Source of the DNA: a virus
DNA: 20,908 nt
Reading direction: 5' to 3' (one strand)
Virus record (IMG/VR): IMGVR_UViG_3300037585_002800
Coordinates: 1-20,908 of that record
A model generated the notes under the pieces. The model ran no database searches, was not told the origin of the DNA, and worked only from the letters and a program-made list of their open reading frames with translations. Both the position numbers and the translations under genes were made by a program. Positions 4,665-16,150 of the stretch are shown one piece after another. The number at the start of each line of letters is the position of its first letter. Position 1 is the first letter of the stretch.

Positions 4665-4916
4665 TCAATCACTTTTATCTAGCGCCCCATCGGCACTTTC
4701 CTCCTCTTCGCCCCGCTCTTCTTCTACAATCTCATCAATGGTATCGCATACATCAGGGATGCTAACTCCCGTGGTTACTTCAGTGGCTACGCGACCCACT
4801 GCTCTGATTCCTTGATAAATACCGGAACAATATAGCTCTTTGTTTTCAATCATTTCTTCGGAAACTGAACAGCTAACAAGGAGAGGGAAAAATAACAATG
4901 GCATTAATTTAAGCAT
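4665..4916 (-). CDS. Small lipoprotein, possible outer-membrane spanin subunit
   Basis: An 83-residue protein with a signal sequence MLKLMPLLFFPLLVSC. LVSC is a good lipobox, so Cys16 would be lipidated and the mature chain would be about 68 residues. The mature part has ELYCSGIYQGIRAVGR, two more Cys (33 and 55), then a strongly acidic tail (EEVVEEERGEEEES-like). I choose ATG 4916 because GAGG lies 9 bases upstream; an in-frame TTG at 4925 would add three residues but has no site. The gene overlaps the lipase gene by 8 bases. A short phage lipoprotein near a membrane-anchored coiled-coil protein could be an o-spanin, but typical o-spanins are proline-rich and this one is not. Function remains unproven. 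Confidence 0.75.
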   Translation of the reverse strand: MLKLMPLLFFPLLVSCSVSEEMIENKELYCSGIYQGIRAVGRVATEVTTGVSIPDVCDTIDEIVEEERGEEEESADGALDKSD

Positions 4917-5748
4917 CTTTTTCAACCTCGTTTAGCAGTTTGTTCATTTCTTTTGCTTCCGCTGCGCTAATGGTAAATCCTTCCGTTGTCTCCAAAGGCT
5001 TTTTTGAACTCAGAGAAAGAGTCTTTTTTTTTGGCTTATCCTTTAATCCAAGATCGCTTTTTGCTCTCTCTCTTTCATTAAGGAAACAGTTAAGCCTTTC
5101 CTTGTAGCCCTCCATAAAATGATCGGATATAGCTTCATCTTTCTCTGACATAAAATCATCACGCTTATAATCTTTGCTGGGGTCTATGCAATCCTCGCCA
5201 GCGTTAGAAAAGTATATGACTGTTTGGCTGCTTGAGGGTCCGTAACAGAGCCTTGGGACTCTAGCAACCATATCGCTACCGGATATTAGAGAAAATTGCT
5301 TGTCCAGCCCCATAGGGCGCTTAAAGCCCTTAAAAAAGGTATTCGGCTTCCCAAAGGTTACAAGGTTAAGGTTAGGATGTTTTTTGTGAAGTTTTGCCGC
5401 TGTAAGTTCCGCCAGCGCTCCACCAAGACTATGACCACAGATGAGAGTCCGCTTTTTTGGGTGAATATGCTTTTTGATCTTTCGCCAGATAGAGGCATGA
5501 GCCATAACAAACCCGCTGTGACATAACCGACCCGCATAAGGAACTGGAATTGCCGATAAGTTAAACAACCAATCCCTTAATTGCTGCGTACCCCTAAAGG
5601 CTATTACATCAATAGACTTCCTCTTTGCTATGTAAGCAGTGGTTGAGGTAAGTCGGGATTCTATTTTAATGCAGTTGCTAATTTCATCATCGTAGGCTTT
5701 CATTGCATAGCTACAGCCCATGCGGAGGAGAACGGGGTCTATATTCAT
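4909..5748 (-). CDS. Class 3 lipase-like alpha/beta hydrolase
   Basis: A 279-residue protein with the Lipase_3 pattern. IDVIAFRGTQQLRDWLFNL (residues 46-64) includes the FRGT strand. CHSGFVMAHASIW (76-88) follows, then the nucleophile elbow GHSLGGALAEL (105-115) with candidate Ser107. LVTFGKPN lies near 129-136, SGSDMVARVPR holds candidate Asp159, and AISDHFMEGY holds candidate His210. All three catalytic residues are thus present. No signal peptide or membrane segment is visible, so secretion would need lysis or another route, or the enzyme could be in the virion. The C-terminal 60 residues are charged and look disordered. It lies between a membrane coiled-coil gene and a lipoprotein gene. 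The substrate, perhaps host phospholipid or another ester, cannot be told from the sequence. Confidence 0.88.
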   Translation of the reverse strand: MNIDPVLLRMGCSYAMKAYDDEISNCIKIESRLTSTTAYIAKRKSIDVIAFRGTQQLRDWLFNLSAIPVPYAGRLCHSGFVMAHASIWRKIKKHIHPKKRTLICGHSLGGALAELTAAKLHKKHPNLNLVTFGKPNTFFKGFKRPMGLDKQFSLISGSDMVARVPRLCYGPSSSQTVIYFSNAGEDCIDPSKDYKRDDFMSEKDEAISDHFMEGYKERLNCFLNERERAKSDLGLKDKPKKKTLSLSSKKPLETTEGFTISAAEAKEMNKLLNEVEKDA

Positions 5749-5757
5749 CGTGGCATC

Positions 5758-6303
5758 CTATTGGCTATCATTTAAAGGGTTATCCAGAATTTGTTGAATC
5801 CTATCTTCCAAATCATCACGGACCGCTCTCAATTCTACATCAATTTCTCTCAAACTGTCATTTACACGCTCTTCAAGGGCATACACATCATCGCGCAACT
5901 CTCGTGTAGCGATAGCCACCGTGTCATCTGCGCCCCTTGCAACATCCTCAACAGTGGCAACATCAACTTCCACTCTGTCAATCTGCTGGTTCACGTTGTT
6001 AAGCAGTCTTTGATTTTGACTTGTAAGGTCATCAATATCCTGTCTCAAAGAGGCTTCTACTGTGTCAAGGATGCGCGATTGATCCGAGAGCCGTGTTTCT
6101 AGGACTGCTAATGCCTCATCGTAGCCGCTAAAGTCAGGGCTAACGTACTCAGTTATAGCAGTTTCAGCATCAATCAAGCGCTGGTATACCTCAAATCCGC
6201 CCCACATAGACCCGCCAATAGCCCCCAACAAGGGAACTATAAGAAGTATTTTGCTGCCGCTTATTGTAGCCCCGCCAAACTCCAACTCTGTTTTATCGTT
6301 CAT
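5758..6303 (-). CDS. Membrane-anchored coiled-coil protein, possible inner-membrane spanin
   Basis: A 181-residue protein with a short N-terminal tail and one hydrophobic segment at about residues 19-36 (ILLIVPLLGAIGGSMWGG). From residue 60 to 178 it is a long charged heptad-like region (VLETRLSDQSRILDTVEASL, then ALEERVNDSLREIDVELRAV). This is the topology of an i-spanin or a related periplasmic coiled coil: cytoplasmic N-terminus, one anchor, extended coiled coil outside. No catalytic motif is seen. It overlaps the upstream NIDO gene by 11 bases and precedes the lipase. It could instead be a structural or tail-associated protein. I did not recognise a named family. Confidence 0.8.
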   Translation of the reverse strand: MNDKTELEFGGATISGSKILLIVPLLGAIGGSMWGGFEVYQRLIDAETAITEYVSPDFSGYDEALAVLETRLSDQSRILDTVEASLRQDIDDLTSQNQRLLNNVNQQIDRVEVDVATVEDVARGADDTVAIATRELRDDVYALEERVNDSLREIDVELRAVRDDLEDRIQQILDNPLNDSQ

Positions 6304-8794
6304 ATTGCTGCCCCACTAAATCTTGGAACCTCTGTGCGCCCTGTCCTTGCAAGGCTCTGACGTTACCATCTATAGGCGCATTTCCACCGTATATCTCTCT
6401 GGATTGATACCACTGCTGTTGATCTATAAGGTCTATATTGTACGCTTCTACGCCGTCAACTCTACCCATCAGAAGAATCGTTAAAGATTGATCATCAAAT
6501 CCGCCAGAGTCCTGCATCCCCTCTAGCTGTGAATCTTGTGCTTGTTCAATCTCTGCGCTGGTCATGCTTTGTATAGCGTTCTCCGCTCTACGGACCGTTT
6601 GTTGTTCCTCTACACTAGGAGGAGCAACATCAAATTGCCCAAAGTCTGGAGCTTGCTGGCTTAGGAACTGCCCGACACTCTGACCTGCACCTAACGCATC
6701 ATTAAAATCTTGCTCAAACTGCATTTGCTGAGCTGAATCGCCTAAATCCTGCGTAGCTTCTAGCTCTTCGGACTCCTCGGCTTCCTCAACCTGAATGCTT
6801 GATGTTTGCGTAATAACCTCTTGTTCTGTGGCCTGAACATCAAAAAAGCCCGTACCTGCTTGCTCAAAAACTTGCTGTTGTTGCTGTTGCTGTTGTTCTT
6901 GTTGTTGTTCTTGCTGCGCTTCCTGCTGCTGCACTTCTTCCCGTCTGACTTCCTGCATGGCAAGCTGTACATTACTTGTGTCACCGTAAACCGCATCTAT
7001 TTCAGCAACCGCAGTAGAGGCAGCTTGTTCTGTTACCTGTAGTAGCTCAGATTTAATGTCTAAGGTGTCAACGGTAAAATTGCTTTGAGTGGTGCTTACA
7101 ATGCCTACGCCGCCATAGTTAAAAGACATATCCACCGATTCCGAGCTAGTAAAAGAGCTTTGGGATTCCATTGTACTTTGCGAGCTGAAAGAGCTTTGAG
7201 CGGCAAAAGCGCTAGTCTGAGCTACAATGTTTAAAGCAAGACCAGTAACATCAAGAGGTGAGGCCGTAGGCTCAACTATTGCTGCCACCTCTTCTACTTC
7301 CTCTATAATTTCCTCTTCAATGACCTCTTCTGCTTCAGCAACCTCTACAACTTCTATAATTTCCTCTTCTATAATCTCTTCTTCTACTTCTACAATCTCA
7401 ATAATCTCTTCGGGTTCTTCAAAGATTTCTTCCTCAAAGATTTCTTCCACTTCCTCAATAATCTCTACCACTTCAATCTGCTCTTCAAAGACCTCTTCAA
7501 ACACCTCTTCCTCAAAGACCTCTACAATGACTTCTTCAAACACTTCTTCAAACACTTCCTCAAAGGTTTCTTCAAAGACCTCTTCTATCTCATCAACTTC
7601 AACAACTTCCACAACCTCAATTACAGGTAGATCATCAATTCCATCATCACCATTAAACCCAAAATCATTCCCACTAAAAACATCGTTATCAACCACAACA
7701 ACAATAGTATCTTGCCCAGTATTATCTTCATCATAGCCATCTAGGTCATAACCGTAAAAATCTTCTTCGTCATAACCAAGCGCGTTATCGTCATAACCCA
7801 AGGAAACCATTGTGCTGGCATCTGTTGTATTCGTGTAATCTACTGCGTCATCATCGTCATCAACAAAGTAATAGTCAGTTACATCATCCCCATCCACCAC
7901 ATCTGTGTACTGATCTGTGGCGTTTGAAGTAAGAACAGTGTCCCAGTAACCAGAACAAGAAACATCATAGCTGGCATCTGCCGCACACTGTTGCGCTGTG
8001 TATGCCGCCTCATATCCGGTGCATTCAGAGCTATACAAAGCGTTAGCGTCACACTGCTGGGTTAAATAGGCCGCATCGTAGTTGCTGCAAGAGGTAGAAA
8101 AAAGACCATTAGAATTGCACTGACTAGCAAAAGAAGCTGAATAAACACCGCCCATTTCTATTTGATTTGTAAAAGTGGCATCCCAAGAATCCCACGTTGG
8201 ATAAGCGTTGCTCTTGTCGTAGAAGCGATAGGTGTTGTGGTCTGAGCTAGTGTTCTGCTCTCCGATTAATACATCATGTTGAATAATGTCCAGCTCTCGG
8301 TATCTGTACTCGTAGCTGTCGTTTTCGTACAGGATAGCCTCAAAGCTGTTACTGGAGTTTCGGTAATACTCCCTCATGTGATACCAACCGAAAACCACAT
8401 AGTCATCAAATGCCTTAAACAACATTTTGGAAGCATTCCCCGTAGTTGTTTGGTTGGCATTACCCGCTATTAAATCAGTCCAAAACGGATATAAAGTCTG
8501 ATCTCTATACGGGAGAGGTTGCGGCGTAAAGTCATTACAGTTAAGCCCCGTAAAGTTTATACAACCATTAGTGGACATTTTTGCTCTGGTGTAGGTGTTA
8601 CCCCAAATACTAAAGTCAAAACCAAAGTTAGGACTCCACGCAGACACGCTGTCATCACCAGAAGTCAGGTTAGTTGTTCCTGACATTCCGTAAAGATCAA
8701 TCAAGCCGTTAGAGTGCGCGGTATATACATCGGGATCGCTAGTGCTTGCGCCATAGGCTGTAGAGCAAAACAGCAACGCTACTAACCACCTCAC
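6293..8794 (-). CDS. Secreted NIDO-domain-like protein with Cys repeats and acidic and Gln-rich tracts
   Basis: An 833-residue protein with a signal peptide (MRWLVALLFCSTAYG). Residues about 40-222 resemble a nidogen (NIDO) domain: AKMSTNGCINF (71-81), LYPFWTDLIAG (101-111), FDDYVVFGWYHMREY (129-143) and SFEAILYENDSYEYRYRELD (150-169). Three 22-residue Cys repeats follow (Cys 226/236, 248/258, 270/280). Next come an Asp/Tyr-rich part (296-360), a Glu/Val/Ile-rich tract (391-506), a Ser/Gln-rich part with a glutamine run (about 621-641), and a folded-looking C-terminus ending in GQQYER. The start is GTG 8794, forming GTGA with the upstream stop, with AAGAGG before it. NIDO domains are best known from extracellular matrix proteins, so I infer a surface or adhesion role. 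The exact function is unknown. Confidence 0.8.
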   Translation of the reverse strand: MRWLVALLFCSTAYGASTSDPDVYTAHSNGLIDLYGMSGTTNLTSGDDSVSAWSPNFGFDFSIWGNTYTRAKMSTNGCINFTGLNCNDFTPQPLPYRDQTLYPFWTDLIAGNANQTTTGNASKMLFKAFDDYVVFGWYHMREYYRNSSNSFEAILYENDSYEYRYRELDIIQHDVLIGEQNTSSDHNTYRFYDKSNAYPTWDSWDATFTNQIEMGGVYSASFASQCNSNGLFSTSCSNYDAAYLTQQCDANALYSSECTGYEAAYTAQQCAADASYDVSCSGYWDTVLTSNATDQYTDVVDGDDVTDYYFVDDDDDAVDYTNTTDASTMVSLGYDDNALGYDEEDFYGYDLDGYDEDNTGQDTIVVVVDNDVFSGNDFGFNGDDGIDDLPVIEVVEVVEVDEIEEVFEETFEEVFEEVFEEVIVEVFEEEVFEEVFEEQIEVVEIIEEVEEIFEEEIFEEPEEIIEIVEVEEEIIEEEIIEVVEVAEAEEVIEEEIIEEVEEVAAIVEPTASPLDVTGLALNIVAQTSAFAAQSSFSSQSTMESQSSFTSSESVDMSFNYGGVGIVSTTQSNFTVDTLDIKSELLQVTEQAASTAVAEIDAVYGDTSNVQLAMQEVRREEVQQQEAQQEQQQEQQQQQQQQVFEQAGTGFFDVQATEQEVITQTSSIQVEEAEESEELEATQDLGDSAQQMQFEQDFNDALGAGQSVGQFLSQQAPDFGQFDVAPPSVEEQQTVRRAENAIQSMTSAEIEQAQDSQLEGMQDSGGFDDQSLTILLMGRVDGVEAYNIDLIDQQQWYQSREIYGGNAPIDGNVRALQGQGAQRFQDLVGQQYER
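6872..6934 (-). repeat. Glutamine-rich tract in the NIDO protein
   Basis: Residues about 621-641 of the NIDO-like protein are nearly all Gln with a few Glu, Val and Ala. They are encoded mostly by CAA with some CAG, so the DNA is close to a trinucleotide repeat and prone to slippage. Confidence 0.85.
7277..7624 (-). repeat. Glutamate/valine/isoleucine-rich low-complexity tract
   Basis: Residues about 391-506 of the NIDO-like protein are built from irregular copies of EEVFEEV, EIIEEE and EVVEV. The tract alternates acidic pairs with Val, Ile and Phe and holds almost no other residue type. The plus-strand complement yields a Ser/Thr-rich open frame that is only a shadow. Confidence 0.85.
7922..8119 (-). 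repeat. Three 22-residue cysteine repeats
   Basis: Three copies in the NIDO-like protein fit C-x9-C with exactly 22 residues from one copy to the next (Cys 226/236, 248/258, 270/280). Conserved features are a Tyr or Phe before the second Cys and GY/NY-x-x-AY-x-x-QQ after it. The third copy is shortened at its end. Disulfides inside each unit are likely if the protein is exported. Confidence 0.85.
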
Positions 8795-10092
8795 CTTCTG
8801 TTGCCTCTTCTTCCGTAACGCCTGTACTCATAGTCAGATTCTAGCTCTTCCGGCTCTTCTGCTTCCGCCTCCCAAGCTATCTGAGCTTCTTCGCCTATTA
8901 ACCCTTCGTAGGGGCAGGGCGTTCCTGCCATACGCATAGCGTCAAATACTCGTTCGTCCTGACACATCAGGCTAACCGCAGCCACGCGCATTCCCATGTC
9001 ATAAAGCGTTTTGCCTAACTTAATTCTTTCGCAGTTTTCATCGGTAATAGAGCGACCCCCAGAGAAACCGAATATCTGCGTTTGTATTGCTCCTGAAACA
9101 CCAGTAGTACACAAATCTTGCGAGTAACTGGAGCCGATACTTGGCGCTATTGCGCTGGGCGGCGGTGATTCTATTCGTTGAGTTACCCGCTGGCTGCTCG
9201 TTGATTGGCTTGTGTTGTTGTTTGTATTCGTATTGTTAGCCGTAGAGCTTACTTCGCTGTTTGATTGGCTAAAATCGTTGTTAGTGCTTACGTTATTACT
9301 GCTGGAAGTTTGATTAACGGTTGAAGTGTTAGTGTTCGTATTGGTACTGGTGTTCGTGTTATTAGACGTTGTATCGCCCGTATAGGTAGTATTGTTGGTG
9401 TTGGTGTTATTGCTTACTGACGAACCCGTATAGTTCGTGGTGTTGCTGTTATCCGATGTTGAGTTATTCGTATTGGTATTAGTTGAATTATTCGTTGAAG
9501 TAGAGACGTTGGTGTTGTTATTGCTATTGGTGTTTGTGGCCGCAGATGTTGAACTCGTTGTATTGTTATTCGTGTTCGTGGTGTTACCCGTATACTGAGT
9601 AGTGTTGTTATTAACATTGTTTGAGTTAGTTGTGCCATCGTAAGTCGTTGTGTTCGTATTTGAATTAGTGTTTACGTTAGTGGAATTATTCGTGTTAGTT
9701 GAGTTATTGGTGTTTATCCCAGTGTAATTCGTATTGTTGGTGTTGTTATTAGTATTGGCATTTGTGTTGGTGCTGGTTGACGTATTCGTATTTACGGACG
9801 TATTTGATCCCGTGTAGTTCGTTGTATTGCTGTTCGTATTGGTGTTGTTGCCCGTGTAAGTCGTTGTATTTACGTTAGTATTATCGTTTGAGTTGGTGTT
9901 TGTGTTGACGTTATTGCTGGTAGATGTGTTCGTGTTGACGGATGTATTGGTGTTTACGTTCGTATTATTGTTGTTATTTTCAGACGTATTGCTAGTGCTA
10001 GACGTATTAGTAGTCGTGATATTGGTGTTTGTATCCTGCGCTAACAGGGGGAAGCTCGCTAAAACGCAAGCTACAAAAAGTAATTTTTTCAT
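8791..10092 (-). CDS. Secreted Asn/Thr-rich protein with a conserved Cys-containing C-terminal domain
   Basis: A 433-residue protein starting MKKLLFVACVLASFPLLAQD, a clear signal peptide. Residues about 20-300 are almost only Asn, Thr and Ser. They are broken by a recurring YTG motif (Tyr at 79, 93, 123, 167, 221, 237; YDG at 151). A Pro-rich hinge (SPPPSAIAPS) leads to a compact domain (about 320-410) with four Cys (328, 354, 377, 393), including ITDENCERIKLGKTLYDMG and MAGTPCPYEGLIG. The end is acidic then Arg-rich. The C-terminal domain resembles one I associate with marine phage proteins, but I cannot name a function. GGGGGGAGG lies 12 bases before the ATG and 9 before an in-frame GTG at 10095, so either start is possible. 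Confidence 0.82.
   Translation of the reverse strand: MKKLLFVACVLASFPLLAQDTNTNITTTNTSSTSNTSENNNNNTNVNTNTSVNTNTSTSNNVNTNTNSNDNTNVNTTTYTGNNTNTNSNTTNYTGSNTSVNTNTSTSTNTNANTNNNTNNTNYTGINTNNSTNTNNSTNVNTNSNTNTTTYDGTTNSNNVNNNTTQYTGNTTNTNNNTTSSTSAATNTNSNNNTNVSTSTNNSTNTNTNNSTSDNSNTTNYTGSSVSNNTNTNNTTYTGDTTSNNTNTSTNTNTNTSTVNQTSSSNNVSTNNDFSQSNSEVSSTANNTNTNNNTSQSTSSQRVTQRIESPPPSAIAPSIGSSYSQDLCTTGVSGAIQTQIFGFSGGRSITDENCERIKLGKTLYDMGMRVAAVSLMCQDERVFDAMRMAGTPCPYEGLIGEEAQIAWEAEAEEPEELESDYEYRRYGRRGNRR
9190..10035 (-). repeat. Asn/Thr/Ser low-complexity region with YTG punctuation
   Basis: About 280 residues made of short NT, NTNT, NNT and NTST units with YTG every 14 to 54 residues. Asn uses both AAT and AAC, and Thr uses all four codons. 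The DNA is therefore not a simple tandem repeat, although its plus strand reads as a long series of GTT/GTA/GTG-type triplets. Confidence 0.9.
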
Positions 10093-10118
10093 CACGCACT
10101 ATGACCTCCCCCCGTAAA

Positions 10119-10488: not shown

Positions 10489-12000
10489 TTATGAGTCTCC
10501 GTTTAAAAGTAGTTTTGATGTTGAAATTGCTAACCCTGCGCTTACGCTACTGCTAACAGTAGTTATTGTTCCATCATTTTGTACATAATAGCTAGAGCCT
10601 GTGGTTAAACTGCTTAGTCCTGTAATTGTTCCACCCTGTATTACAACTGTTCCTGTTGCGGAATTAGAAATAGCTGCATCAGCGATGCCTAGAAAGTTTG
10701 TTGAAGTGAGATTCGTAACTGATGCCCCTGCTCCCTGACAGGTAGTAATCTTATTGTCGGCTGTGTCAGTAGGACCATCTTGATAGGAAATTTGAAATAA
10801 CCCAGAATCTCCGCAGTAATCTATACACGAATCTTTATATAAAGGACCAGTTTCTACCTCTACCTGAGTATCAAGGGTGCAAGTCATAGAGCCTGAGCTG
10901 CCGCTAACCTGAAAACATCTAACCATATTACCTCCGCTAGTAATATGGTAAATAACGGCAAATCGGGTTGTGTTATTAGGGTCGCCAGCCACATCTATAC
11001 ATCTTACCCCGACAGCATCAAGTGCGTGGCTGCTCACATCAACCTTCGTGTTTTTTGTTCCGTCTGATTCAATAACCCTTACACAGCCATAGTAAGGACT
11101 GCCCTTATCCCTATAAGCTATAACTAAGTGTCCGGTAGAGGCATCATACGCGCCTCTTGCATCTTTTCCCGAATCATCATTACAATTTGTATATGTCACC
11201 GTACTACTAACCGTTGTACCGCTATAAGTACATTGCAAAACTGTTGGAGTATCTCCTGAACCATTTAAAGAGATTATTGCAAATCTTCCGGCAGTTGCGG
11301 GATCAAAACAACAATCTGTATGCTCTGGACCACTGTAATTGGAAAATGCCTGACCGCCTCCGACTGTAACGTCCGTTCCAGAGACAGTAGCCACTCTTGC
11401 TTCAGCGTAATTAGATGCGTTTTTGTAGCCAACGATGTATTTGTTATCTGTGCTGGGATCACCCGCTAAGAAAAGATAAGGCCGAGAGGCTGACTCAACT
11501 GTTAAAACATCGCCAAAAGAACAGGTCGTTCCGTCTATAGTTCCGACTCTGGCCTTTGGATAACCCCCGTTGCCATCTTGGTAATAGACTAAAAACTGCC
11601 CTGATACCTTTCCGCAAGCCACTGATACATAATTCGCCTTATTAGAGCTTTCAAATTCCGTTTCGTCCCCCACTGAAACAGTGTTTCCTGTTCTGGTTAT
11701 AACGCGAGCATAGCCTTTAGCACTAGAAGAGTAGACGATTATTGATTTTGTTGTGTCTGTTGGATGCGTTGCCAAATCTGAAAAATAAGCCGCTCCAAAG
11801 CTGCTACCAGACCCCCACCAAGCAGCAGCGTTTGCCCCGCTTGCAGGAATCGTTTGGCTTGTTGCGCTAGTTCCTACTTCCGTGATAGTTCCCGCACTAT
11901 TAAGAATAACAGGCTTCTTTGTTGCAATGGCTCCGCTGGCTGTAGCCGTAATACTCTTTGCCGAGGCTCCTGCTGGAAGTAAATCAGAAAGATTGCTCAC
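10489..12000 (-). CDS. Beta-propeller tail fibre / receptor-binding paralog 3 (Cys-rich)
   Basis: A 503-residue paralog of the two upstream proteins. It shares the N-terminal module (MSNLSDLLPAG, then GAIATKKPVILNSAGTIT) and the C-terminal module (TNLTSTNFLGIADAAISNSA, GLSSLTTGSSYYVQNDGTIT). Between them, residues about 70-430 hold seven divergent blade repeats with the pattern D-x-x-x-x-(K/R/Q)-hydrophobic strand, then a Gly turn, then R-V-x-T-x-(S/D)-G-T. Unlike its nearest sister, it has 13 Cys, so disulfides may stabilise it outside the cell. The start is GTG at 12000, overlapping the upstream TGA (GTGA). I infer a host-contact fibre; the fold is inferred from repeat spacing, not shown by a structure. 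Confidence 0.8.
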   Translation of the reverse strand: MSNLSDLLPAGASAKSITATASGAIATKKPVILNSAGTITEVGTSATSQTIPASGANAAAWWGSGSSFGAAYFSDLATHPTDTTKSIIVYSSSAKGYARVITRTGNTVSVGDETEFESSNKANYVSVACGKVSGQFLVYYQDGNGGYPKARVGTIDGTTCSFGDVLTVESASRPYLFLAGDPSTDNKYIVGYKNASNYAEARVATVSGTDVTVGGGQAFSNYSGPEHTDCCFDPATAGRFAIISLNGSGDTPTVLQCTYSGTTVSSTVTYTNCNDDSGKDARGAYDASTGHLVIAYRDKGSPYYGCVRVIESDGTKNTKVDVSSHALDAVGVRCIDVAGDPNNTTRFAVIYHITSGGNMVRCFQVSGSSGSMTCTLDTQVEVETGPLYKDSCIDYCGDSGLFQISYQDGPTDTADNKITTCQGAGASVTNLTSTNFLGIADAAISNSATGTVVIQGGTITGLSSLTTGSSYYVQNDGTITTVSSSVSAGLAISTSKLLLNGDS

Positions 12001-13442
12001 GACTGATACTCCAAGTTAATTGATGTTGCTGACAGGGCTTTGCCTATCTTTTTACCCGCACTTGCCGTGGTTATTGTCCCGTCATTTTGTACATAATAAT
12101 CAGAAGCCGGAGTTAAGCTGCTTAATCCGCTAGAGGCTATTCCGCCTTTAATTGTTACGTTGCCACTAGCATCGTCAGAAATAGCCGCATCGGAAATGCC
12201 TATGAAGTTTGTTGCGGTGAGGTTGGAAGAATCCACAAAATAAACAACTGAACCTGCCCCTCTGTAAGCAGAAACAAATTTATCCGCGTCTGGATCATAA
12301 ATAGTATTCTGCCCAGAAGATGAATAAGTTACATCCCCTGTAAAATTAAGAGCAGTACCAAACGAGATAGAGGTTCCTGAAATAGTTCCCGCAACAGCAA
12401 AACCATCAAACGTGGTTGATGCTTCAGTGTAGGACACCACAGTTTTATTGCCAGTTGAGTTATAAGCACAAGCTAGATTGGAGGTTCCTCCAGAGTAAAA
12501 CTCCGCTTCTGCGCCAAATGTTATTCCGGTTCCTGAAACAGTCCCGACTACAGCTTTACCTGCTCCGCTGATTGAATAGGGAACTACCGCTTTATTAGCA
12601 GTTGTGTCGTAAGCTACCGTTGCGCTGTTGGTATTAGCAGTTTTAAATACAGCCGCAGTGCCGAATGAGATACCTGTTCCGCTTACCGTACCGACACTTG
12701 CCGTTCCATAACTTGAGTTCCCATCGTGCTTGTACACAAGAATCATTTTATTTTCATCAGGATCGTGGACTAAATTGTGCGAACTTGTTTGGTTGGTTTG
12801 AAAAGCGGTTTCTGAACCAAAAGAAATACCTGTGCCGCTTACGGTTCCCACAACAGCAGTCCCGTAATCTGAATTACCATCATCCCTAAACGCTATTACT
12901 GCCTTGTTTGCAGTTGAATCAAAACCAATTCCTATGTTGGTGGTACTGGCAGCATTAAAATTAGCCTCCGTACCAAATGATATGGTATTAGCAGACCCAT
13001 CAACCGTCCCTACAATAGCTTTTCCGTAATTTGAAGCACTACCATCTCTATAGGCAACAACTACTTTATTAGCATTTGAATCAAAGGTGGCGGCAATAGA
13101 AGTTGTTTCCCCGCTATTAAAAACCTGAGGGTCTCCCCAAGAAAGCGATGTCCCAGTTACGGTTCCGACAGCAGCAGTACCATATTGCGAATTTCCATAA
13201 TCCATCCAGACCACTACAACTTTGTTTGTGTTTGTATCATAAACAACATTTACATAGTCGGGAGTACCCACACTCCCAAAAGATACCGGAGTACCTGCGC
13301 TACTATTTGATGATGTTATAGGACTAATTGTCCCTGCACTATTAAGAACAACAGGCTTACCCGCAGCGCTAATTGCACCATCGGCAGTAAAACTGACCTG
13401 TTTCCCTGCTCCAGCAGGAAATAAATCGGAGAGATTCGTCAT
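11997..13442 (-). CDS. Beta-propeller tail fibre / receptor-binding paralog 2
   Basis: A 481-residue protein with the same ends as its paralogs (MTNLSDLFPAGAG at the start; SSLTPASDYYVQNDGTITTA near the end). The middle is seven clear repeats of about 52 residues. The consensus is a hydrophobic-FD-x-x-x-NK-V/A-V strand, then Y-R-D-x-G-N-S-x-Y-G-x-A, V-G-T-V-S-G-T and I-S-F-G. Blade-start aromatic positions are 68, 120, 174, 226, 278, 327 and 382. A lone TPVSFG before the first repeat (51-56) matches the outer strand missing from the seventh, as in Velcro-closed propellers. The ATG overlaps the upstream stop (ATGA), with AAGGAT upstream. Only one Cys is present. Confidence 0.82.
   Translation of the reverse strand: MTNLSDLFPAGAGKQVSFTADGAISAAGKPVVLNSAGTISPITSSNSSAGTPVSFGSVGTPDYVNVVYDTNTNKVVVVWMDYGNSQYGTAAVGTVTGTSLSWGDPQVFNSGETTSIAATFDSNANKVVVAYRDGSASNYGKAIVGTVDGSANTISFGTEANFNAASTTNIGIGFDSTANKAVIAFRDDGNSDYGTAVVGTVSGTGISFGSETAFQTNQTSSHNLVHDPDENKMILVYKHDGNSSYGTASVGTVSGTGISFGTAAVFKTANTNSATVAYDTTANKAVVPYSISGAGKAVVGTVSGTGITFGAEAEFYSGGTSNLACAYNSTGNKTVVSYTEASTTFDGFAVAGTISGTSISFGTALNFTGDVTYSSSGQNTIYDPDADKFVSAYRGAGSVVYFVDSSNLTATNFIGISDAAISDDASGNVTIKGGIASSGLSSLTPASDYYVQNDGTITTASAGKKIGKALSATSINLEYQS
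12219..13298 (-). repeat. Seven-blade propeller repeat region of paralog 2
   Basis: Residues about 49-408 hold seven degenerate repeats, spaced 52, 54, 52, 52, 49 and 55 residues between matching positions. The recurring protein signature is VGTVSGTxISFG followed by a loop and then D-x-x-x-NK. Confidence 0.85.
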
Positions 13443-16150
13443 CCTGTGTAATCCTTAATATTAATCTGGGTTGTACTAATAGCTTTGCCGATGAGCTGTG
13501 CGGGAGAGGTACTGGTGGTGGTCATCGTGCCATTTTCCTGAACGTAGTAATCAGAAGCCGTAGTCAAAAGTGGACCTTTTGGCGAAAAGACAACTCCAGT
13601 ACCATAGCTTGAATTTCCCACATCTTCGTAAGCAATAACCACTTTGTTAGAATTTGAATCAAAAACGGTTGCCGTTTCCTTAATGCTGGAAGTTTCAAAG
13701 ACAACGGCTGTATCAAAAGATATGGACGTATTACTAACAGTCCCTTCTATGACTGTTCCGTAATTAGAATTGCCCCCATCTTTGTACGCTATTACCGCTT
13801 TATTTGTACTGGAGTCAAATGCGGCTGAGAACCAATCGTCCCAACTCTCATCAAAAACAACAGCAGTGCCGAAGGATATATCTGTTCCTGAGACGGTTCC
13901 TACTATTGCCGTACCGTAGTATGAGTTTTGCGCGTCATTGTAAGCTAGAACAACCTTGTTGGAATTTGAATCAAAAGTAGCCGCTGGGTAGTATATATCA
14001 GCGTTTTCAAAAGTAACCTCGTTCCCAAAACTGATGGCCGTTGAACTAACAGTGCCAACTATTGCATGGCCTTTGCTACCATCACCTGAATCCTGCCAAG
14101 CAATAACCACTTTGCCAGCATTTGAATCAAAGGTAGCAGCCGCCGCCTTAGCAGTGCTTCCTGAGTCAAACTGTACCGCAGTTCCAAAGCTGATAGACGT
14201 ATTGCTAACAGTTCCTACGATAGCTTTCATAGTCCCTGTTGAGTAAACAATAACTACCTTGTTATTTGAAGAATCAAAAGTGGCTCCCATGTAATAACTG
14301 TTGGCACTACTAAAAACGACAGGGCTTCCAAAACTAATACTTGTTCCATCAACAGTACCCACGATAGCTGTTCCGTAATTTGAGTTACCCGCATCTCTAA
14401 AGGAAATAACAACCTTGTTAGAATTTGAGTCAAAGGCGATGCCAAAGTGTGCCGCTTCTGCGGCCTCAAAAACCACAGGAGTCCCATAAGAAATTGATGT
14501 TCCGCTTACAGTGCCGACTACTGCTGTGCCATGTTCAGAATTACCCCCGTCTCTATAGACAATAACCACTTTATTAGAATCTGAGTCAAAGACAGCTCTT
14601 GTGTGATCAGCGTTTGCTGATTCATAAACAACAGGAGTGCCTGCCGAGCTACTAGCAGGGTCTCTAGGAAGATCAGAAACAAGGCTTCCCCATGTATTAA
14701 TTGTTCCGCTTGCTGAATTGGATATTGCGGCAGGAGCAACGCCAAGTAAATTAGTAGCCGTGAGGTTTGTTTTTTCGTAAGTTCCTGCTACTTCTGTTAC
14801 AAAAGCCCGTTGTGGCGTAGAGGCATCATTAGCTTCTGCCCATACAGAAATAAAGCGTCCAAAATTATTAGGGTCATTTGCCACGCCAATACCCCCGCCA
14901 CTGGTATTAACCTCGTCGGTATAAGTGTGGTTTGGAGTAGTAAAAGTTACAGCACCCGAACTAATTGTCCCTATAGTTTGCATAACATCCGCGTTGCCGA
15001 TGCTACCAGTGGTAGTTAGATGATTGATTAAAAATTTGCCAGAACCCCCTCCAGCACAAGCTACTCTTGCCGGAGCCATGCCAGTTTGCCCAGTAGAGCC
15101 TATGCCTACCATTGACCCAAAAGTTATAGCTTTTGTTGTAGTATTTACCGTCCCTACATATCCTTGCCATTGTCGGGAAGTGTTACCAGAAGGACCATAA
15201 CCAGCGGTTATTGCTAAAAACTGCCCAGAAACATCAGTATTAAAACAACCCGTATGCCCTATACTTTCTCCGTAGGACATAAATACAGAGGCAGTATTAG
15301 AAGTAATTGTTGTGCCAGACACAGAAAGACACCTAGCCGTTCCATAACCAGAATTATTAGGGTCACGAAAAACTGTAACAAAAATTCCTGAATCTTTTGG
15401 AGAGGCAAATACAACAGGACCGTTGATTTCGGATGATCCTGAGCTGGGAGTATGTACAGTGGCCGCGCTACCAAAGGTCATTGTAGTTCCACTTCCAGAA
15501 GCCAACGTCATCATTATTGCTTTAACATATTTTACGGAAGATGGCTCATTCCATAGAATCATGTATTGATTTTCTACATTGGGGTCTGCTGCGATTTTTC
15601 CGTAAAAACCAGCACCCTCACCAGAAGAAATAGTAGCGTCAAATTGTTGCGGGGTTCCTACAGTTAATCCAGTAGCCCCATTAAAGACAACTGATACAGC
15701 CATCCCTGTAGAGCTTGCGCCCCCATAAACTATTACAAATTTTCCCGCATTATTAGGGTCAGCAGCCATACCCAGCATAGATGTTACGCCAGAAGAAACA
15801 ATAGATACTGGAGTGCCTAAACTAACAGAAGTGCTGCCCCCTGAGTTAGAAACCGTACCTACAATTCCCTTTATATAACCGTTCCTTCCCGTACAAAAAA
15901 GAAATTTATTAGTATCTGCGCTATCCCAAGCACAATCAGATGGCCTGCACCACTTATGGATGTTTGCCGTACCTTGAGACCCCGCCAAAAAATCGTTAGT
16001 AGATATAGTGGTTGTATCAAGTCCTGCCTGACTAACAGTCCCATTGCTATTTAAGATAACGGGCTTTCCAGCAGCTATAGCACCGCTGGCGGTAAACTCA
16101 GTATTATTTTGACCACCGCCCGCAGGGAGTAGATCAGATAAGTTGCTCAC
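13439..16150 (-). CDS. Double beta-propeller tail fibre / receptor-binding paralog 1
   Basis: A 903-residue protein. It starts with the paralog N-terminal module (MSNLSDLLPAGGG, then GAIAAGKPVILNSNGTVS). Residues about 60-465 hold seven divergent blades with six Cys. Then comes the linker NLTATNLLGVAPAAISNSAS, which in the paralogs lies just before the C-terminal module. Here a second, very regular seven-blade propeller (about 502-857, no Cys) is inserted before the C-terminal SDYYVQENGTMTTTST module. Each propeller appears to close with an N-terminal strand (TPVVYES before blade 1 of the second). The GTG start follows the upstream TGA directly, with GGAG 7 bases before it. I infer a receptor-binding fibre with two binding heads per chain; binding partners are unknown. 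Confidence 0.82.
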   Translation of the reverse strand: MSNLSDLLPAGGGQNNTEFTASGAIAAGKPVILNSNGTVSQAGLDTTTISTNDFLAGSQGTANIHKWCRPSDCAWDSADTNKFLFCTGRNGYIKGIVGTVSNSGGSTSVSLGTPVSIVSSGVTSMLGMAADPNNAGKFVIVYGGASSTGMAVSVVFNGATGLTVGTPQQFDATISSGEGAGFYGKIAADPNVENQYMILWNEPSSVKYVKAIMMTLASGSGTTMTFGSAATVHTPSSGSSEINGPVVFASPKDSGIFVTVFRDPNNSGYGTARCLSVSGTTITSNTASVFMSYGESIGHTGCFNTDVSGQFLAITAGYGPSGNTSRQWQGYVGTVNTTTKAITFGSMVGIGSTGQTGMAPARVACAGGGSGKFLINHLTTTGSIGNADVMQTIGTISSGAVTFTTPNHTYTDEVNTSGGGIGVANDPNNFGRFISVWAEANDASTPQRAFVTEVAGTYEKTNLTATNLLGVAPAAISNSASGTINTWGSLVSDLPRDPASSSAGTPVVYESANADHTRAVFDSDSNKVVIVYRDGGNSEHGTAVVGTVSGTSISYGTPVVFEAAEAAHFGIAFDSNSNKVVISFRDAGNSNYGTAIVGTVDGTSISFGSPVVFSSANSYYMGATFDSSNNKVVIVYSTGTMKAIVGTVSNTSISFGTAVQFDSGSTAKAAAATFDSNAGKVVIAWQDSGDGSKGHAIVGTVSSTAISFGNEVTFENADIYYPAATFDSNSNKVVLAYNDAQNSYYGTAIVGTVSGTDISFGTAVVFDESWDDWFSAAFDSSTNKAVIAYKDGGNSNYGTVIEGTVSNTSISFDTAVVFETSSIKETATVFDSNSNKVVIAYEDVGNSSYGTGVVFSPKGPLLTTASDYYVQENGTMTTTSTSPAQLIGKAISTTQINIKDYTG
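13580..14647 (-). repeat. Second, regular seven-blade propeller of paralog 1
   Basis: Seven repeats with matching Phe at residues 521, 573, 625, 674, 726, 778 and 830, that is spacings of 52, 52, 49, 52, 52 and 52. The units read FDSNSNKVVI, a Y-x-D turn, GTAIVGTVSGTSISFG and AVVF. The near-exact period points to recent amplification or homogenisation. Confidence 0.88.
14756..15973 (-). repeat. First, divergent seven-blade propeller of paralog 1
   Basis: Residues about 60-465 contain seven weaker repeats. Each has a DPN/DS turn, a G-K-F or N-K-F strand, a Gly/Ser-rich turn and a V-G-T-V-like strand. Unit lengths vary from about 50 to 62. This half is closer in character to paralog 3 than to the second half of the same protein. 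Confidence 0.65.

What the first reader, a model, noticed from the sequence alone, without database searches (positions are those of the whole stretch)
6293..8794. Phage-encoded secreted NIDO-like protein with Cys repeats and extreme acidic tract
A nidogen-like domain, typical of extracellular matrix proteins, is joined to three 22-residue Cys repeats, an Asp/Tyr-rich part, about 115 residues of Glu with Val/Ile/Phe, and a glutamine run, all behind a signal peptide. The acidic tract could bind calcium in seawater and extend the adhesive head. Phage-encoded export of such a large protein suggests remodelling of the infected cell surface or an adhesive on the virion.
Basis: partly seen in the sequence, partly recalled or inferred. 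Interest (0 to 1): 0.7.

Follow-up and report, generated by a model that had tools for sequence, protein, structure and literature searches.

The report
Marine phage exported adhesin cassette
The odd acidic protein is one part of a widespread three-gene cassette with which marine phages send a sticky protein with an exchangeable tip out of the infected bacterium's cytoplasm, next to the genes that burst the cell; neither this cassette nor a NIDO domain in a phage protein turned up in the papers I could search.

Summary
In detail: an 833-residue ORF with a signal-like start, a NIDO-like head, three 22-residue Cys repeats, a D/Y part, a K/R-free Glu tract and a Q run. The gene (B) is the middle of a conserved cassette, A-B-C. 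A is exported, with an N/T-rich tract and a 4-Cys domain; C is a single-TM coiled coil usually ending in NPL. A is in at least 600 IMG/VR stretches but only 11 of 50,697 phage records. B has a constant C-terminus, an often acidic stalk, and a head that is NIDO-like (51 of 80) or another type, CBM-like in some pelagiphages. The NIDO assignment holds at family level (Pfam NIDO in 19 of 59 members; RemA adhesin profile hit E=1.4e-13), though the window's own match is below threshold and no solved structure matched. Breakpoints fall at the head's boundaries, so the head is exchanged by recombination. The cassette moves between sipho-, podo- and myophages and often sits beside endolysin/spanin genes; CsgG was absent from all 58 records tested. 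Most likely an exported envelope adhesin acting outside the virion around lysis. Its target and benefit (receptor masking, cell adhesion or lysis aid) are inferred, not shown. The virion-adhesive reading is disfavoured.

The parts
6293..8794 (-). Gene B: exported modular adhesin-like protein (the finding), 833 aa, GTG start
   Evidence: relatives in 42 IMG/VR loci
8747..8794 (-). B signal-like peptide (residues 1-16)
   Evidence: heuristic; such a start in 107 of 118 B genes against 177 of 1002 control genes
8129..8746 (-). B NIDO-like head (residues 17-222), the exchanged part
   Evidence: breakpoints
7925..8122 (-). Three 22-aa Cys repeats (residues 225-290), modelled as short helices
7619..7924 (-). 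Asp/Tyr-rich part (residues 291-392)
7250..7618 (-). Glu/Val/Ile/Phe acidic stalk (residues 393-515), no K/R in 400-515
6872..6937 (-). Gln run (residues 620-641)
6293..6487 (-). Constant C-terminal domain of B (about residues 770-833), shared by NIDO and non-NIDO B proteins
8791..10095 (-). Gene A: exported N/T-rich protein with 4-Cys C-terminal domain; overlaps B by 4 nt
9196..10038 (-). Asn/Thr-rich tract of A (residues 20-300)
8872..9195 (-). 4-Cys domain of A (residues 301-408), PHROG 20531 relative
5758..6303 (-). Gene C: N-terminal transmembrane segment plus coiled coil, C-terminal NPL motif; overlaps B by 11 nt
4909..5748 (-). Class 3 lipase gene, linked to the cassette in the nearest relatives (association, not shown to be part of it)
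   Evidence: Pfam Lipase_3 1.7e-18
4665..4925 (-). Small lipoprotein-like ORF (lipobox LVSC), linked to the cassette in the nearest relatives

Best explanation
B is the adhesin of a three-protein export cassette carried by marine phages. SHOWN BY SEQUENCE: A and B start with signal-like peptides; C starts with a membrane anchor followed by a coiled coil; the three genes are adjacent or overlapping in most loci. B is built of an exchangeable head (NIDO-like here), a variable and often acidic stalk, and a constant C-terminal domain. The cassette often sits next to endolysin and spanin genes and moves between unrelated virion types. INFERRED: B is exported by Sec and held by its constant C-terminus to A and/or C in the host envelope. 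The Cys-repeat and acidic stalk acts as a charged spacer. The cassette brings no recognised outer-membrane exporter, so the head is either exposed at the surface by an unknown route or stockpiled in the periplasm and freed at lysis. There it binds host-surface glycans or proteins. The likeliest benefit is occupying or masking receptors on the infected cell and its debris, so that superinfecting phage and progeny do not adsorb to a dead end. The head is exchanged because receptors differ between hosts.
For: Conserved cassette: A in at least 600 IMG/VR stretches; a C relative 2-8 genes after A in 97 of 104 loci; A/B ORFs overlap in 74 of 80; A-B order also in cultured pelagiphages. Export: signal-like start in 108 of 118 A and 107 of 118 B against 177 of 1002 controls; TM in 126 of 132 C, NPL end in 114 of 132. 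Adhesin-like head: Pfam NIDO in 19 of 59 members, best 1.9e-5; profile hit to the RemA gliding adhesin, E=1.4e-13; CBM_4_9 below threshold in two phage B proteins. Constant C-terminus. Head exchange: window against L009/L007 has A about 0.9, head 0.67-0.76, stalk mostly 0.85-0.93; against L004 the head is 0.85-0.91 and the stalk mostly 0.55-0.8. Lysis linkage: 14 of 15 endolysins found lie within 4 kb on the same strand; lysozyme, GH19, Rz-like spanin downstream.
Against: No experiment, no expression timing, no localisation. Late expression is only inferred from gene neighbourhood, and an endolysin was recognised near the cassette in only 14 of 31 loci. Receptor masking itself has no direct evidence: no ligand is known. 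In the window the genes upstream of A belong to a tail-fibre-like region, which fits an adhesive virion part equally well. The signal-peptide test was a home-made heuristic. No A-B-C contact was modelled.
Confidence: 0.4

Rival explanations
1. Infected-cell adhesion ('sibling capture'): the exported A/B material makes the infected cell or its debris stick to neighbours or particles, so progeny meet hosts sooner. Same anatomy, different benefit.
For: Adhesin-like exchangeable head; low-complexity N/T-rich tract in A; the same benefit was proposed for the curli genes of pelagiphages (PMC7029224, PMC9599517).
Against: No CsgG in any of 58 records tested, so no curli-type secretion. Curli-bearing phage Melnitz showed no clumping under culture conditions (PMC9004378), though that is another system.
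Confidence: 0.25
2. Lysis accessory: A-B-C forms an envelope-spanning complex (C in the inner membrane, B reaching the outer membrane through its stalk) that helps disrupt or time the breaking of the outer membrane.
For: Close linkage to endolysin, Rz-like spanin and lipase genes; C has an N-in single-TM coiled-coil layout like i-spanins (layout described in PMC6139136).
Against: In L027 (and for the i-spanin and lysozyme also L103) C lies beside separate spanin-like and lysozyme genes, so it does not replace them. Head exchange and lectin-like heads are not expected of a lysis part.
Confidence: 0.2
3. Virion adhesin: B coats or decorates the particle and helps it bind hosts or particles.
For: The window's cassette follows a run of tail-fibre-like genes; exchangeable heads resemble tail-fibre tips.
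Against: Signal-like start in 107 of 118 B; partners are exported or membrane proteins; the cassette is shared by sipho-, podo- and myophages; no NIDO head outside B or B-like genes in 157 loci.
Confidence: 0.1

Closest known systems
RemA gliding-motility adhesin of Flavobacterium johnsoniae (PDB 8gl6 chain D)
   Same: N-terminal ~220 residues match the head profile (E=1.4e-13); exported surface adhesin (function from general knowledge and the papers listed)
   Different: RemA is a 1436-residue chain exported by the type IX system (general knowledge); B is phage-encoded, ends in its own constant domain, and no T9SS sorting-domain family was reported in the Pfam scans
Pfam NIDO (PF06119)
   Same: 19 of 59 heads match, best E=1.9e-5; window head E=0.0051 over 115 residues
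   Different: Window match is below the curated cut-off (17.3 against 25 bits); no solved structure was matched by Foldseek
Phage-borne curli/T8SS cluster of pelagiphages (PMC7029224, PMC9599517)
   Same: Phage-encoded multi-gene export module of marine phages, proposed to alter the infected cell surface
   Different: CsgG (PF03783) absent from all 58 carrier records tested; different proteins
Rz/Rz1 two-component spanins
   Same: C shares the N-in single-TM plus coiled-coil layout and often lies near lysis genes
   Different: A separate i-spanin-like gene and lipoprotein gene follow C in L027, and a separate i-spanin-like gene follows it in L103
PHROG 20531 (unknown function)
   Same: Window A matches it, E=1.3e-16
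   Different: Has no assigned function; B and C have no convincing PHROG

Membership tests
NIDO domain (PF06119) | Sequence profile match | tested here: inconclusive
   Window E=0.0051, 17.3 bits, below the 25-bit cut-off; 19 of 59 family members match, best 1.9e-5
NIDO domain (PF06119) | Same fold as a solved NIDO structure | tested here: inconclusive
   AF2 model pLDDT 82; Foldseek PDB best E=1.2, nothing significant; whether a NIDO structure is present there is not known
RemA-type adhesin head | Profile homology to the RemA N-terminal region | tested here: met
   E=1.4e-13 over RemA residues 13-254
RemA-type / T9SS-exported adhesin | T9SS C-terminal sorting domain | tested here: not met
   No such Pfam family reported for the whole protein at E<=1; B has its own C-terminal domain
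Curli / type VIII secretion | CsgG outer-membrane pore in the same genome | tested here: not met
   0 of 27 and 0 of 31 records, controls positive; many records are fragments
Curli / type VIII secretion | CsgF and curlin repeats | not tested
   No search for PF10614 or curlin repeats was made
Two-component spanin | C is the only i-spanin-like gene of the lysis cassette | tested here: not met
   L027 has C plus a separate i-spanin-like gene, lipoprotein and T4-type lysozyme; L103 also has a separate i-spanin-like gene and lysozyme
Virion receptor-binding protein | Present in virions | not testable with these tools
   No proteome of a carrier phage found
Virion receptor-binding protein | Lacks an export signal (assembled in the cytoplasm) | tested here: not met
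   Signal-like start in 107 of 118 B genes (heuristic)
Superinfection-exclusion / receptor-masking protein | Blocks adsorption of the same phage | not testable with these tools
   Needs experiment

The most novel reading that the evidence does not exclude
A-B-C is a previously undescribed, ocean-wide phage system: a membrane-anchored export complex that displays, or stockpiles until lysis, a modular adhesin with heads exchanged like tail-fibre tips. It would be a phage-made 'second receptor-binding protein' that works outside the virion and decides what happens around the bursting cell.
Probability: 0.35. Interest if true: 0.85.

Novelty: new variant of a known kind. Interest (0 to 1): 0.62.

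Why it matters
The cassette is common in uncultured aquatic phages (at least 600 hits in IMG/VR) yet nearly absent from the annotated phage collection (11 of 50,697 records), so it has escaped notice although several pelagiphage isolates carry it as hypothetical proteins. If the model is right, many marine phages invest up to several kilobases in changing what the infected or lysing cell sticks to. That bears on superinfection, loss of progeny on debris, and aggregation in the dilute ocean. It also gives a function to test for three large families of unknown proteins, with cultured carriers (HTVC023P, HTVC115P, HTVC202P, CRP-207) at hand.

Tried and rejected
Direct Pfam, PHROG, NCBIfam and PDB searches with the window protein gave nothing convincing. 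tblastn of B against phage records: no match; the pelagiphage B genes were found only through A. Curli/T8SS link: rejected for CsgG. C as the i-spanin: rejected, because separate spanin-like genes occur beside it. Acidic tract as a nucleotide-repeat artefact: rejected on mixed codons and recurrence in relatives. NIDO by solved structure: Foldseek PDB uninformative. BFVD gave only uncharacterised viral proteins, best A0A6J5P7T5 at 4.3e-11. A domain model: moderate quality (pLDDT 70), BFVD hits only uncharacterised phage proteins. First alignment A4 held seven wrongly cut sequences and was replaced by A5. The MAG contigs that carry A look like phage contigs in the three I read (L055, L060, L064), so they do not give hosts. 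The window's tape measure and connector gave no clear host. Literature searches found no description of this cassette or of a NIDO domain in phage.

Full report
CHECK OF THE OBSERVATION. The ORF at 6293-8794 (-) encodes 833 aa. Its anatomy is as described: a signal-like start, a globular part to about residue 222, three 22-residue Cys repeats (225-290), a D/Y-rich part, and a Glu tract in which residues 400-515 hold 53 E and no K/R. A Q run follows, and then a C-terminal region. Glu codons in the tract are mixed (34 GAA, 22 GAG), so it is not one expanded triplet. Searches of Pfam, PHROGs and PDB with the window protein gave nothing convincing, and tblastn against 50,697 phage records gave no match. 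IMG/VR holds 42 loci encoding relatives.

THE FINDING IS ONE GENE OF THREE. The upstream gene A (8791-10095) has a signal-like start, a long Asn/Thr-rich tract and a C-terminal domain with four conserved Cys. That domain occurs in cultured pelagiphages and a roseophage as hypothetical proteins, each followed by a second gene, in most of them a larger one with a signal-like start, a different head, a Glu-rich stalk and a C-terminal part. In the loci fetched, A is nearly always followed directly by B, the ORFs overlapping in 74 of 80 non-redundant cases. Gene C (5758-6303), with an N-terminal membrane segment, a coiled coil and a C-terminal NPL motif, has a relative 2 to 8 genes after A in 97 of 104 loci. 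Because C is a coiled coil, some jackhmmer hits could be drift, but 126 of 132 hits carry the TM segment and 114 of 132 the NPL end. Signal-like starts were scored in 108 of 118 A and 107 of 118 B genes against 177 of 1002 other genes (a home-made rule, not SignalP).

ARCHITECTURE OF B. A profile built only from the C-termini of NIDO-type B proteins finds 17 B proteins without a NIDO head, 14 of them at E of 0.0004 or better, so the C-terminus is the constant part. Heads vary: 51 of 80 are NIDO-like, and two phage heads resemble CBM_4_9 below threshold (E=0.009 and 0.02), which agrees with the depositors' label 'putative carbohydrate binding domain' on two such genes. Stalks vary: 58 of 80 have a strongly acidic window (against 25 of 829 other genes), while some are S/T/P-rich instead. 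The acidic tract is therefore a common but not universal feature.

IS THE HEAD NIDO? The window head alone scores E=0.0051 for Pfam NIDO, below the curated cut-off. Nineteen of 59 family members match NIDO, best 1.9e-5, far more than any other family. A profile of the family finds one PDB sequence, the RemA adhesin, at E=1.4e-13. The AlphaFold model of residues 17-290 is good (pLDDT 82; beta-rich head, helical Cys repeats), but Foldseek found no significant PDB match and only uncharacterised viral proteins in BFVD. I therefore call it NIDO-like, with RemA-type homology shown and NIDO membership not proven for this sequence.

THE HEAD IS EXCHANGED. Nucleotide identity of the window to L009 and L007 is about 0.9 over A, falls to 0.67-0.76 over the head, and returns mostly to 0.85-0.93 over Cys repeats, stalk and C-terminus. 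To L004 it is the reverse: head 0.85-0.91, the rest mostly 0.55-0.80 (protein values). Upstream of A the similarity to L009 and L007 falls to the level of unrelated sequence. Among 74 B proteins there are pairs with near-identical C-termini and divergent heads, and pairs the other way round. The second kind alone could reflect a slowly evolving head; both together point to recombination at the head boundaries. This is inference from sequence, but it is the strongest sign that the head is a specificity module.

CONTEXT. The window is a siphophage fragment (tape measure, Ad1/Hc1 connectors). L159, from the record of L011, carries A-B-C, lipase, lipoprotein and endolysin with a different, podovirus-like set of virion genes, and Mosig (Kyanoviridae) and L064 are myophage-type carriers (L064 typed by eye). 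So the cassette is not tied to one virion design. Among genes within three places downstream of C in 53 loci there are 13 T4-type lysozymes, 5 GH19 enzymes, 2 M15 peptidases, 7 Rz-like spanin matches and 6 class 3 lipases. In 31 loci with at least 4 kb on both sides, 14 have a recognised endolysin within 4 kb; 14 of the 15 endolysins seen there are that close and all are on the same strand. Upstream genes include nucleases and further endolysins. In L027 the order is A-B-methyltransferase-C-(i-spanin-like)-(lipoprotein)-lysozyme-terminase, so C is not simply the spanin.

WHAT IT IS NOT. Pelagiphages are known to carry curli-type export genes, for which sibling capture, uptake and lysis timing were proposed (PMC7029224, PMC9599517, PMC9004378). 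CsgG was absent from all 58 carrier records tested, with positive controls, though many records are incomplete and CsgF was not searched. I found no paper describing this cassette or a NIDO domain in phage proteins; the library is open-access only.

MECHANISM. Shown by sequence: conserved order, export or membrane features, constant end with exchanged head, frequent proximity to lysis genes, spread across virion types. Inferred: an envelope complex; a head binding surface glycans or proteins; no dedicated outer-membrane exporter, hence exposure by an unknown route or at lysis; benefit by masking receptors on the infected cell and debris. Adhesion of cells, help with lysis and a virion adhesive are rivals, in that order of likelihood; the tools here cannot decide between the first three readings.

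Noticed in passing
window 10489-16150 (-): Three consecutive large genes (10489-12000, 11997-13442, 13439-16150) begin with nearly the same MSNLSDLLPAG / MTNLSDLFPAG and share repeats such as GTAVVGTVSGTSISFGT: tandem paralogues, probably tail-fibre or propeller-like.
   Followed up: no
window 4665-5748 (-): A class 3 lipase and a small lipoprotein-like gene stay linked to the cassette in a podovirus-like relative (L159) although the virion genes differ.
   Followed up: partly
L116 9250-9747, L149 9232-9729, L154 9272-9775: In some loci small exported proteins reminiscent of SCPU/pilin-like domains lie between B and C (resemblance from memory, not tested).
   Followed up: no
L044 13243-13692: HTVC115P carries a gene annotated toxin-activating lysine-acyltransferase about 3.4 kb downstream of its B gene, beside large hypothetical genes.
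   Followed up: no
L055, L060, L064 (MAG contigs): Contigs binned as Euryarchaeota, Neomarinimicrobiota and Alteromonadales carry phage-type gene sets around the cassette, so the bins' names are not evidence of host.
   Followed up: partly
L027 3203-3781: A methyltransferase-like gene is inserted between B and C.
   Followed up: no
L116, L118, L122, L126, L149 (A genes): Some A proteins end in a hydrophobic tail that could anchor them in a membrane, unlike the window's A.
   Followed up: no
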